Source of the DNA: a virus
Direction: 5' to 3' (one strand)
DNA length: 27,744 bases
Virus record (IMG/VR): IMGVR_UViG_3300027668_000080
Coordinates: 1-27,744 of that record
Part shown: piece after piece, positions 22,895 through 25,453 of the stretch
Layout: each line of letters starts with the position of its first letter
How positions within the stretch are numbered: the first letter of the stretch is position 1
Made by a program: the position numbers and the translations under genes
Notes under the pieces: generated by a model
Told to the model about the DNA's origin: nothing
The model's input: the letters and a program-made list of their open reading frames with translations, nothing else
Database searches by the model: none

Positions 22895-23151
22895 TGGAGC
22901 CTATTACATTAATATTTTTAGGCGGCATGGTTTCCGGTGTTATAATTGGCGACGCTTTCGATCCTATTGGAATTGATGATAACGAGCATGTCGTTAATGA
23001 ATGTACCACCAAAACTACAAAGTCTAAGATATATGACAAGGAATTAAAGATTTATATAGAGAACGAGTTTGTTGAATCCACCTGTGTAGGTAAATATGTC
23101 CCTCCAGAACGACCTATACTTAACGCAATAAAGAACAAAGTAACCCATTAA
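22894..23151 (+). CDS. Small single-pass membrane protein of unknown function
   Basis: An 85-residue protein at the end of the late operon, overlapping the previous stop by one base (TAATG). Residues 4-22 form one hydrophobic segment with glycines (ITLIFLGGMVSGVIIGDAF), followed by a polar domain with Cys37 and Cys64. The position and topology would suit a lysis or envelope-associated function, but it is not a recognisable holin or spanin. The stop codon lies in the loop of the terminator that follows. Confidence 0.6.
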   Translation: MEPITLIFLGGMVSGVIIGDAFDPIGIDDNEHVVNECTTKTTKSKIYDKELKIYIENEFVESTCVGKYVPPERPILNAIKNKVTH

Positions 23152-23167
23152 TAGTGGGTTTTTTTGT
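23142..23167 (+). terminator. Intrinsic terminator ending the late operon
   Basis: AACCCA and TGGGTT form a six-pair stem with a seven-base loop, directly followed by a run of T bases. The loop contains the stop codon of the small membrane protein gene. It separates the structural module from the non-coding region. Confidence 0.75.
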
Positions 23168-23170
23168 CTG

Positions 23171-23232
23171 TATTCCGGCAAATCCCTTGATATGAGCGGA
23201 GTTCGTTGGAATCACTATATATTATGTAGGGG
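23171..23232 (+). repeat. ~61-bp direct repeat, copy 1
   Basis: Shares tattccggcaaatcccttg, ggagttcgttgga and actatatattatg with the copy at 23631, in the same order and spacing. Only the eight bases after the first block, a few near the AT core and the last bases differ. It begins just after a terminator and ends 7 bases before the 14-bp helix of the first RNA candidate. A promoter (AT core followed by GGGG) or an RNA motif are both possible. There is no good -35 box at the normal distance. Confidence 0.8.
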
Positions 23233-23238
23233 TACTAG

Positions 23239-23626
23239 TTAATTAGTATCACTCTTGAAGTTAGGTTTACTAATAAGCGATGTGACTGTCAAAGGAAACT
23301 GTAAACGCTTAGGTGTATGGTCAAAAGCTCATACGAGCGCACTGAACGATATGTTCTTAGGTAAACATGAACCCATAAAGGTAGCCATTGGGGGAAACGG
23401 TATATACAGAGTATCCAGTCGTCCTAACGGCAGTATCAACGAATTTAGACTAGGGCTTTTGAGCAAATATAGAAAAAGAACTAAGTCACAGCAATCAAGC
23501 TCTTGCTTGAAGCTCCCTGACCACACATAGTAATCAAGATAACCTTGAAGCTCCCTGACTTCTTTCTTCTATATATGTTGCGTTATTTATATACTTGTTC
23601 AAGACTTTTGGGGTGATACTAATTAA
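23239..23626 (+). ncRNA. Candidate structured RNA 1 (~388 nt, closed by a 14-bp helix)
   Basis: The ends 23239-23252 (TTAATTAGTATCAC) and 23613-23626 (GTGATACTAATTAA) are perfectly complementary. Inside, TCTTGAA 23253-23259 pairs with TTCAAGA 23598-23604. A possible pseudoknot follows: GTTTAC 23265-23270 with GTAAAC 23301-23306, interleaved with TAAGC 23274-23278 and GCTTA 23307-23311. Further short hairpins (GCTC-ATAC-GAGC, ATGTT/AACAT) and two tandem hairpins near 23495 and 23534 are visible. Direct repeats flank the element on both sides. The only sizeable open frame here starts at a TTG without a ribosome binding site. Strand is assumed to be that of all neighbours. The RNA family is unknown to me. 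Confidence 0.55.
23491..23559 (+). repeat. Tandem hairpin repeat inside RNA candidate 1
   Basis: Two ~30-base units (23491-23521 and 23530-23559) each form TCAAG/CTTGA and end with the shared 16 bases cttgaagctccctgac. The stems are kept while the loops differ (CTCTTG versus ATAAC). A related motif, gaaagctccctg, recurs near 23871. Confidence 0.7.
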
Positions 23627-23630
23627 ACAG

Positions 23631-23692
23631 TATTCCGGCAAATCCCTTGCTACGCAAGGAGTTCGTTGGATTTACTATATATTATGAAGGGT
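23631..23692 (+). repeat. ~61-bp direct repeat, copy 2
   Basis: Second copy of the repeat at 23171, exactly 460 bases downstream. Here the variable part makes a hairpin, CCTTG-CTACG-CAAGG, enclosed by AAATCC/GGATTT. It starts four bases after RNA candidate 1 ends and leads into the next structured stretch, which begins with AAGGG. Confidence 0.8.
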
Positions 23693-24072
23693 AAGGCAAT
23701 GGTTGATTCCTCACGCCACCCAAGATCGAAACTTGGTACTAAGCATCCAGTCGGTAATATACCGCTGAGAAATCTTGAGAATAGCTACCAAGTCAATTGT
23801 TGAAATGACAATTCTGATGAGATCATAGTAGTAGGTAGGTTAGCTTTAGTATGTTCCCTGGCTGACTGTGTGAAAGCTCCCTGTAAGGCAATGGTTGATT
23901 CCTCACGCCGAACAAAGTAATTTACATTGCGCTTTATTGCAAGGCGGTAATTGGCAGTGTATAGCTTAATAACGACTAGCCTATCTACTACTGTGATTGA
24001 CATCATAGTACATTATATCAGTACACTCGATTGGGGTTCTCCAATCTTCACTATAATGTTACATTTAACTGT
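23692..24072 (+). ncRNA. Candidate structured RNA 2 with an exact 26-bp internal repeat
   Basis: No convincing gene is present. A 26-base sequence occurs identically at 23692-23717 and 23884-23909 (it contains ggcaatggttgattcc). Inverted repeats include CCAAG 23720-23724 with CTTGG 23732-23736, competing with ACTTGGTA 23731-23738 / TACCAAGT 23786-23793. Others are CGGTA-ATA-TACCG 23752-23764, AATTGT/ACAATT around 23795-23813 and GATTGG/CCAATC 24029-24046. It is bounded by repeat copy 2 and an intrinsic terminator, so it may be one transcript. Whether it is one RNA or several is unclear. Confidence 0.4.
24052..24057 (+). promoter_or_regulatory. Possible -10 box (TATAAT)
   Basis: A perfect TATAAT lies 16 bases before the terminator stem and 64 bases before the tmRNA. 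The best -35 candidate (TTGGGG at 24031) has a short 15-base spacer. A perfect TTGACA occurs at 23997-24002 but is too far away to pair with it. Start from here would place the terminator hairpin in the tmRNA leader. Confidence 0.25.
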
Positions 24073-24104
24073 GGGACACCTTAACGGGTGTCCCCCTTTT
24101 TTTT
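24073..24104 (+). terminator. Strong intrinsic terminator upstream of tmRNA
   Basis: GGGACACC (24073-24080) pairs fully with GGTGTCCC (24087-24094) around a six-base loop, and is followed by CC and eight T bases. This is a textbook rho-independent terminator. It ends only 16 bases before the mature tmRNA 5' end. Confidence 0.88.
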
Positions 24105-24120
24105 CGTCTCAACATTTTAC

Positions 24121-24467
24121 GGGGGTGACCAGGTTTCGACAGTATGTTAAGTTTGAAAGCTTGCTATCGGATGATTCTAATACATCCTAAACACATTAGA
24201 AAACTAGTAAATGCAAACGACTCAATGTTCGCACTAGCAGCCTAAGAAACTGCTAAAGACCTCGTTAGGTTATCTCGCTAACGATTAGTCTTCATAAGAG
24301 ATACAGACATATGTATATACACTCGCATATATGTTTAAATAAGGGTGTTGCTAGTATATAAAGTTTTCTTGTTCACTTATATACTTCAAGATCAAGATAA
24401 GATATGATAGCTAAATGTTGATAATAAGATATATTGGACGGCGGTTCGATTCCGCCCACCTCCACCA
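24121..24467 (+). ncRNA. ssrA: Phage-encoded one-piece tmRNA
   Basis: The RNA rescues stalled ribosomes, acting as a tRNA(Ala) and then as a short mRNA. The 5' end GGGGGTGACCAGGTTTCGAC has the tmRNA signature. The 3' end has a T arm (GGCGG-TTCGATT-CCGCC, 24440-24456), acceptor strand CACCTCC, discriminator A and an encoded CCA. GGGGGTG (24121-24127) pairs with CACCTCC, with G3 opposite U70, the alanine identity pair. The tag frame (24213-24245) reads ANDSMFALAA then TAA. The stop lies in a hairpin (TAGCAG/CTGCTA), and more hairpins such as CGTTAG/CTAACG follow in the pseudoknot region. At 347 nt the length is normal. The molecule is complete, with no missing key element. Host SmpB and alanyl-tRNA synthetase would be needed. 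Confidence 0.95.
24213..24245 (+). other. tmRNA tag-peptide reading frame
   Basis: GCA AAC GAC TCA ATG TTC GCA CTA GCA GCC TAA encodes ANDSMFALAA. The E. coli tag is ANDENYALAA, so the AND start and the ALAA end are kept while the central residues differ. The C-terminal LAA is the known ClpXP recognition signal. Confidence 0.92.
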
Positions 24468-24818
24468 ATTAGTAGGCTCTTTTGTCGGATACATCTAAGT
24501 GTGTAAGCTGGCACAATAAAGGGCTAATTTGGCTTTGCAATGCTGACATGTTTGTCGCATCGAGTTGTAAAGCACTCCGGGCTAGTATTCCCGCGTTCGT
24601 AAATGTCGCGTAGGATTAGTAGTATTCCTACTTAATATGAAGGGTGATATAAAATAAGCACCCCTTACCTAGTTAGTTACGGCTAACAATATGGTAATGC
24701 CAAGTTGTTGGATCGACAAAGTAAAACCAACCGTACGTCAACATTCGCACACGCCGAACTCAACCACCATGTATGCGCTTGGTGGCTACACCTCTACCGG
24801 CGAGAGAGCCTACTAATT
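24467..24818 (+). ncRNA. Candidate structured RNA 3 (~352 nt, closed by a perfect 14-bp helix)
   Basis: AATTAGTAGGCTCT (24467-24480) is the exact reverse complement of 24805-24818. Within it I see nested or serial stems. GCTTTGCAA 24532-24540 pairs with TTGTAAAGC 24565-24573, enclosing TGC..GCA and GACA-TGTT-TGTC. Further stems are CGGG/CCCG 24578-24593, CGCG 24592-24595 / 24607-24610, GTAGGA/TCCTAC 24610-24631, AAGGGTG/CACCCCTT 24640-24666, GTTAG/CTAAC 24672-24687 and CCACC/GGTGG 24764-24785. Neither strand has a credible gene. The first base coincides with the CCA end of the tmRNA, so both may be cut from one precursor. It lacks the conserved regions of RNase P RNA that I know, and I cannot name a family. 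Confidence 0.6.
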
Positions 24819-24837
24819 ACAACTAAAGGAAAATAAT

Positions 24838-24930
24838 ATGAAGAAACGCAATAGCAAGAGGTTGAGGGCTGAAGATCAGTACCGCAAAAACCGTCGCAAG
24901 CCTGGCAACGTTAAGGGTAAAAACACATAG
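24838..24930 (+). CDS. 30-residue basic peptide
   Basis: A short gene with an AAAGGAAAA ribosome binding site, 19 bases after RNA candidate 3. It encodes MKKRNSKRLRAED followed by QYRKNRRKPGNVKG and a short end. About 40% of residues are Lys or Arg, with few acidic residues, suggesting nucleic-acid binding. Codons such as CGC, AAG and GGC are more varied than in the next gene. The following gene begins 10 bases later behind its own strong ribosome binding site (AGGAGA), supporting a real operon start. No family recognised. Confidence 0.6.
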   Translation: MKKRNSKRLRAEDQYRKNRRKPGNVKGKNT

Positions 24931-24940
24931 GAGATATACA

Positions 24941-25453
24941 ATGATAAAGTACAAAAGCTTAGAATTATTACAAAAAGAAATAGGAGAAGAAGGCATACCA
25001 GAAGCATTAGTCTTAGAAGGCGAATCAATGATAGATGCATACAACTCAGGCAACAAAAGCATCTTAAACAGATTCTCAAGAGTAGAAACATCAGAATTAA
25101 TACTTGGAGGAGAAGAAGCCAAATTCGACTTCTCAAAAGAAATATTAGAAGACTTCCCAAAAGAATTAGACTCAAAAGTAGGAAAAATAACAATGTTCGT
25201 AGACAAATTCACAGGAGCAGTCTACACATTAGTAACACAAGGAGAAGAATCACAATTATTCTTCCACAACAACAGCAAAGTAGTAATAGAAACATTCGAA
25301 ACAAGAGCAGAAGGATCAGACGAAGTAGTATTCACAGTCAAAGCACCCTTATGGAAAACATTAGTGAAAGGCTCATGGGTTGTAGATGACGATATGAGAC
25401 CATTAACAGACAACTCAATAGCAACATCATTAACAAACTTCATGGGAGAATAA
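24941..25453 (+). CDS. Early protein of unknown function with extreme NNA/NNC codon use
   Basis: A 170-residue acidic protein with a good ribosome binding site (AGGAGATATACA before ATG). I recognise no domain. The first part is helical (LELLQKEIGEEGIPEALVLEGESMIDAYN) and the second half alternates strands (KITMFVDKFTGAVYTLVTQ, SQLFFHNNSKVVIETFETR, EVVFTVKAPLWKTLVKGSW). In the first ~140 codons nearly every third base is A or C: TTC, AAC, TAC, GAC for pyrimidine-ending codons and GAA, AAA, TTA, ATA, TCA, GTA elsewhere. Only about three codons break this, apart from ATG. Neighbours do not show it as strongly. High expression early in infection is one explanation. The pattern also creates long open frames on the other strand, which are artefacts. 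Confidence 0.78.
   Translation: MIKYKSLELLQKEIGEEGIPEALVLEGESMIDAYNSGNKSILNRFSRVETSELILGGEEAKFDFSKEILEDFPKELDSKVGKITMFVDKFTGAVYTLVTQGEESQLFFHNNSKVVIETFETRAEGSDEVVFTVKAPLWKTLVKGSWVVDDDMRPLTDNSIATSLTNFMGE

What the first reader, a model, noticed from the sequence alone, without database searches (positions are those of the whole stretch)
24467..24818. ~350-nt highly structured RNA candidate starting at the tmRNA 3' end
A perfect 14-bp terminal helix encloses 352 bases, and at least seven local stems can be drawn, some with G-U or bulge variation. No gene fits. Large ornate phage RNAs such as GOLLD and ROOL also tend to lie next to tRNA genes, so this may be a new member of that style of RNA, though it is shorter than those.
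Basis: partly seen in the sequence, partly recalled or inferred. Interest (0 to 1): 0.85.

Follow-up and report, generated by a model that had tools for sequence, protein, structure and literature searches.

The report
Sealed RNA spacer beside phage tmRNA
A phage carries, directly after its ribosome-rescue RNA (tmRNA) gene, a 352-base non-coding stretch sealed by a genuine 22-base-pair RNA helix; the helix is probably a processing or protective stem, while the inside folds no better than random sequence, so a new giant 'ornate' RNA is not shown.

Summary
The helix is real. Bases 24467-24480 pair perfectly with 24805-24818, and pairing extends to 22 of 22 (19 Watson-Crick, 3 G-U). It starts on the last A of the tmRNA's CCA end. 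None of 200 shuffled windows holds so strong a long-range helix; the window holds three, all in one 1.6-kb mostly non-coding cluster. The rest of the claim is weaker: without the helix, the interior folds no better than shuffled sequence (z -0.4). Rfam, INPHARED, about 115 related viral loci and the DNA after 57 other tmRNA predictions gave no homologue, so covariation could not be tested. It is not GOLLD or ROOL by cmscan.

Best reading (about 0.42): the helix is an RNA-level processing or insulating stem, of RNase III type, separating tmRNA from the mRNA of a small basic protein. A discrete ncRNA remains possible.

Relatives show a region rich in RNA processing: ten type II hammerhead ribozymes in six genomes (one here, 23724-23824), sealed domains abutting hammerheads, and CDS-less 75-78-nt tmRNAs (a form known from phage DS6A) in five relatives plus one uninspected model hit. 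These neighbours are more interesting than the reported element.

The parts
24467..24488 (+). 5' strand of the 22-bp sealing helix (perfect 14-bp core 24467-24480); its first base is the A of the tmRNA CCA end
24797..24818 (+). 3' strand of the 22-bp sealing helix (perfect core 24805-24818)
24489..24796 (+). interior of the sealed element; not more stable than shuffled sequence; hairpins with high pairing probability at 24532-24573, 24642-24663, 24683-24711 and 24764-24785
24121..24467 (+). complete phage tmRNA, tag ANDSMFALAA
24838..24930 (+). small basic ORF (30 aa) just downstream, preceded by AAAGGA; first cistron of the downstream mRNA (inferred)
23724..23824 (+). type II hammerhead ribozyme candidate (GAUC-GAAA ... 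GUC ... CUGAUGA-GAUC)
   Evidence: a relative (L005) aligns full length to Rfam Hammerhead_II, 24.7 bits, below gathering. The window site itself is not called by Rfam; activity untested
23821..23998 (+). second sealed domain (23-pair closing helix, 19 Watson-Crick + 4 G-U), starting on the hammerhead's last 4 bases
23225..23640 (+). third sealed domain (38-nt imperfect closing helix: 27 Watson-Crick, 7 G-U, 4 mismatches) enclosing a possible 91-aa ORF
24073..24094 (+). intrinsic terminator between the upstream cluster and tmRNA
24625..24645 (+). degenerate third copy (17/21) of the tail of a 62-nt repeat found at 23170-23231 and 23630-23691; possible promoter-like element inside the interior

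Best explanation
The element is the 3' trailer, or intercistronic spacer, of the phage tmRNA transcript. Its 22-bp helix is selected at the RNA level as a processing or insulating stem: double-stranded-RNA cleavage (RNase III type) of the stem would release pre-tmRNA with a short trimmable tail, cut out a roughly 300-nt spacer RNA, and give the mRNA of the small basic ORF (24838) a defined 5' end. Shown: the helix, its position, its excess over chance, its G-U-only deviations, sibling sealed domains next to hammerheads. Inferred: co-transcription, cleavage, the enzyme and the benefit.
For: The helix has 22 uninterrupted pairs and is beyond 200 whole-window shuffles. It abuts the tmRNA CCA end with no spacer, and the ORF begins 20 nt after it. 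The interior is shuffle-like, as expected of a spacer. Elsewhere in this phage group RNA-processing elements sit just before genes: five of ten hammerheads have an RBS+ATG within 20 nt, and four CDS-less tmRNAs run straight into an RBS+ATG. RNase III cutting of T7 and rRNA precursors is the precedent (PMC4858673).
Against: No transcript or cleavage data. The host, and so its RNase III, is unknown. No second sequence in which to see the helix maintained. The spacer is long for a mere processing site. A terminator at 24073-24094 and no obvious promoter before tmRNA leave the transcription unit undefined.
Confidence: 0.42

Rival explanations
1. A discrete, stable non-coding RNA of about 350 nt whose ends are held by the 22-bp helix: a lineage-specific structured RNA that acts on its own, for example as a scaffold or decoy.
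For: Clear ends and a strong closing helix. GC 44% against 38% for the window. L022 has an analogous 369-nt sealed RNA with tRNA-like arms and z -5.8.
Against: Interior z -0.4. No homologue and no Rfam match. Sequence similarity to the L022 RNA was not found.
Confidence: 0.3
2. The interior carries a phage promoter-like module (degenerate copy of the 62-nt repeat at about 24585-24645), and its 3' half is the leader of the downstream operon; the helix is a by-product or regulates the leader.
For: The 21-nt tail of the repeat matches 17/21 at 24625, the third-best site in the window after the two repeat copies; the next is 15/21. The repeats sit after a terminator and before new RNA units.
Against: The similarity is weak: the local alignment score of 14 is equalled by one unrelated site. 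That the repeats are promoters is itself untested.
Confidence: 0.12
3. A DNA-level element: a small inserted sequence (MITE-like) with 22-bp terminal inverted repeats.
For: Inverted repeats flank 308 bp; relative L022 has tRNA-Tyr rather than this element between its tmRNA-like RNA and the next ORF.
Against: Single copy in the genome. I see no target-site duplication. Deviations from Watson-Crick are G-U only, here and in the 23821-23998 domain. The sealed domain in L022 has an unrelated helix sequence.
Confidence: 0.08
4. Chance inverted repeat beside tmRNA.
For: The interior is shuffle-like.
Against: 0 of 200 shuffled windows reach a helix score of 47; the window has three at or above 47, clustered in 1.6 kb.
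Confidence: 0.03

Closest known systems
RNase III processing stems (T7 early mRNA sites; pre-rRNA stalks)
   Same: Long near-perfect helix in a transcript that carries a stable RNA and an mRNA; a stem that could be cut to free both.
   Different: Cleavage not shown; here the helix begins directly on the tmRNA CCA end and seals about 308 nt of weakly structured sequence.
GOLLD and ROOL ornate RNAs
   Same: Phage non-coding RNA region next to a tRNA-like gene; closed outer helix.
   Different: No covariance-model match, 352 nt against many GOLLD members over 800 nt, no conserved interior demonstrated, no tRNA island.
Type II hammerhead ribozymes (RF02276), neighbouring element only
   Same: Core motifs and stems I, II and III; intergenic position in phage.
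   Different: Not inside the reported element; two hammerheads (window, L022) are followed immediately by long sealed domains.
TLD-only tmRNA of mycobacteriophage DS6A, related loci only
   Same: CDS-less tmRNA in a phage; the relatives' 75-78-nt RNAs have the tRNA-like domain and a short P2 hairpin only.
   Different: Found in relatives, not in the window, which keeps a complete tmRNA with tag.

Membership tests
GOLLD / ROOL ornate RNAs | Match to the family covariance model | tested here: not met
   cmscan of the window at gathering and of 23100-25000 at E<=5 gives only tmRNA models plus one weak U6 hit; L034 copy at E<=10 likewise no GOLLD/ROOL
GOLLD / ROOL ornate RNAs | Extensive covarying secondary structure | not testable with these tools
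   No diverged homologue found; single-sequence interior z -0.4
GOLLD / ROOL ornate RNAs | Location near phage tRNA islands | tested here: inconclusive
   Adjacent to a tmRNA, but no tRNA gene in the window
RNase III processing stem | Long near-perfect double helix (about two helical turns) in the transcript | tested here: met
   22 uninterrupted pairs; the two-turn length requirement is from general knowledge
RNase III processing stem | Cleaved by RNase III in vivo or in vitro | not testable with these tools
   No transcript or enzyme data
tmRNA group I intron form / tRNA with intron | Interrupted T-loop, or tRNA halves flanking an insert | tested here: not met
   tmRNA is continuous with an intact T-loop; ARAGORN with introns finds no split tRNA in the window
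Retron msr-msd RNA | Adjacent reverse transcriptase gene | tested here: inconclusive
   No reverse transcriptase among the neighbouring proteins scanned with PHROGs and Pfam; not every ORF was scanned
Type II hammerhead (neighbour at 23724-23824) | GAAA, cleavage triplet, CUGANGA and three stems with stem II open | tested here: met
   Descriptor match; 0 hits in control loci and shuffles
Type II hammerhead (neighbour at 23724-23824) | Match to Rfam Hammerhead_II at gathering score | tested here: not met
   Not reported for the window; one relative scores 24.7 bits against gathering 37

The most novel reading that the evidence does not exclude
These phages carry a new class of fast-evolving sealed RNA domains (three in the window, one with a tRNA-like closure in L022), most of them placed directly at the 3' edge of a ribozyme or tmRNA and released by RNA processing as discrete functional RNAs; the 352-nt element is one of them.
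Probability: 0.2. Interest if true: 0.8.

Novelty: new variant of a known kind. Interest (0 to 1): 0.45.

Why it matters
If the stem is a processing signal, it shows how a phage combines a tmRNA, hammerhead ribozymes and long sealing helices to cut up its transcripts. It also bounds the 'ornate RNA' claim: a strong whole-element folding z-score can come from one terminal helix. The neighbouring CDS-less tmRNAs in relatives make phage interference with ribosome rescue testable, since a similar molecule strongly inhibits tmRNA (PMC4131195, PMC11915505).

Tried and rejected
No homologue: blastn against INPHARED phages with the 901-nt region and with the element alone; sensitive blastn and nhmmer against the related loci fetched from IMG/VR and four later ones; nhmmer against the DNA downstream of 57 other phage tmRNA predictions; tmRNA-tag pattern scans of viral contigs (only the same phage) and of genome contigs (none). 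Near-identical contigs L032 and L034 have no variation inside the element, so no covariation test was possible. The 16-base repeat pattern scan gave two contigs of the same phage and five others with no detectable similarity to the region, taken as chance. Rejected: group I intron, split tRNA, GOLLD/ROOL, coding gene; retron judged unlikely. Homology with the L022 sealed RNA was looked for and not found.

Full report
OBSERVATION. The window is an IMG/VR virus contig with tailed-phage structural genes (portal, scaffold, capsid, ejection). ARAGORN and Rfam agree on one complete tmRNA at 24121-24467, tag ANDSMFALAA. The reported 14-bp helix is exact and extends to 22 uninterrupted pairs, 19 Watson-Crick and 3 G-U. 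Its first base is the last A of the tmRNA CCA.

SIGNIFICANCE. I scored every gapless long-range helix (span 100-600 nt) in the window. The three best (50.5, 48.5, 47.0) all lie in 23225-24818; the fourth, in coding sequence, scores 35.5. In 200 dinucleotide shuffles of the whole window the best single score was 45.5. All deviations from Watson-Crick pairing in the two cleanest helices (3 here, 4 in 23821-23998) are G-U, with no mismatch, which favours selection on RNA over a DNA repeat; the scoring itself favours G-U over mismatches, so this is supportive, not decisive. The third helix (23225-23640) has 4 mismatches.

INTERIOR. The whole element folds at -113.3 kcal/mol, z -4.4 to -4.5. Without the helix, 24489-24796 has z -0.42, and the opposite-strand interior z -1.9. 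The 'seven local stems' are therefore what a sequence of this composition gives. Four hairpins have high pairing probability, but without homologues nothing says they matter.

HOMOLOGUES. None beyond near-identical contigs L032 and L034. Searches of INPHARED, of related viral loci, and of the DNA after 57 other phage tmRNA predictions were negative. In that last set the best adjacent sealing helix had 10 Watson-Crick pairs, against 19 here; many of the 57 have predicted 3' ends that are not CCA and may be mispredicted, so the control is approximate. A 16-base pattern search gave L034 and L032 plus five contigs without detectable similarity to the region, taken as chance hits.

CONTEXT. The stretch upstream of tmRNA, between terminators at 23142-23160 and 24073-24094, contains a type II hammerhead ribozyme candidate (23724-23824) and two other sealed domains, one of which encloses a possible 91-aa ORF. 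The descriptor finds ten distinct type II hammerheads in six related genomes (window; L005 x2; L007; L022 x2; L247 x2; L248 x2), none in 0.67 Mb of control loci and none in shuffled sequence. Rfam gives full-length sub-threshold support for one of them (L005, 24.7 bits). Five of the ten have an RBS+ATG within 20 nt downstream (both in L005, both in L248, one in L247). The window hammerhead and one L022 hammerhead are followed at once by a long sealed domain (L022 7416-7784 starts one base after the hammerhead). The L022 domain has tRNA-like acceptor, D and T arms around a 264-nt insert, z -5.8, and is absent at the same junction in L005.

CDS-LESS tmRNAs. L022, L247, L248 and L249 carry 75-78-nt tmRNA-like RNAs that match Rfam tmRNA above gathering, and L250 has one recognised by eye. 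In these five, acceptor, P2 and T stems are fully paired with changes on both sides, the G3-U70 pair is kept, and a 12-nt loop AAnATTnAnTTA is conserved. A covariance model built from the five finds one further match, L072 18758-18835 (93.6 bits), which I did not inspect. In L247, L248, L249 and L250 an RBS+ATG follows directly; in L022 tRNA-Tyr comes first. TLD-only tmRNA is known from mycobacteriophage DS6A, and such molecules inhibit tmRNA (PMC4131195, PMC11915505). The window keeps a full tmRNA.

MECHANISM. The simplest account is that the sealing helix is a processing or insulating stem between tmRNA and the downstream mRNA, as in RNase III processing of T7 and rRNA precursors (PMC4858673). 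Shown: helix, position, excess over chance, neighbourhood. Inferred: co-transcription, cleavage, benefit. A discrete ncRNA is the main rival. The DNA-element and promoter-leader readings are less likely; chance is excluded in practice.

VERDICT. Observation partly confirmed, interpretation partly supported. A real, probably RNA-level sealed spacer; not shown to be an ornate RNA.

Noticed in passing
L022:8241-8318, L248:2898-2975, L247:7885-7962, L249:106-180, L250:5884-5961; further model hit L072:18758-18835 (-): CDS-less (tRNA-like-domain-only) tmRNAs of 75-78 nt in five phage relatives, with fully paired stems, kept G3-U70 and a conserved 12-nt loop; a sixth match in L072 by covariance model was not inspected. 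Like the DS6A form, possible inhibitors of host trans-translation.
   Followed up: partly
window 23724-23824; L005 11271-11322, 11508-11559; L007 17720-17775; L022 7185-7261, 7348-7415; L247 1066-1115, 2838-2887; L248 1692-1746, 2070-2119: Ten distinct type II hammerhead ribozymes in six related phage genomes, half of them within 20 nt of an RBS+ATG; none in control loci or shuffles.
   Followed up: partly
L022:7416-7784: 369-nt sealed RNA with tRNA-like acceptor, D and T arms around a 264-nt insert, one base after a hammerhead, z -5.8; absent at the same junction in L005.
   Followed up: partly
window 23170-23231, 23630-23691; L034 three copies: A 62-nt repeat (hairpin plus TATATATTATGNAGGG tail) that may be a phage promoter module; L034 carries an extra copy about 90 nt from the first.
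   Followed up: partly
window 23691-23717, 23883-23909; 23506-23521, 23544-23559: Exact 27-nt and 16-nt direct repeats (GTAAGGCAATGGTTGATTCCTCACGCC; CTTGAAGCTCCCTGAC) inside the cluster upstream of tmRNA.
   Followed up: no
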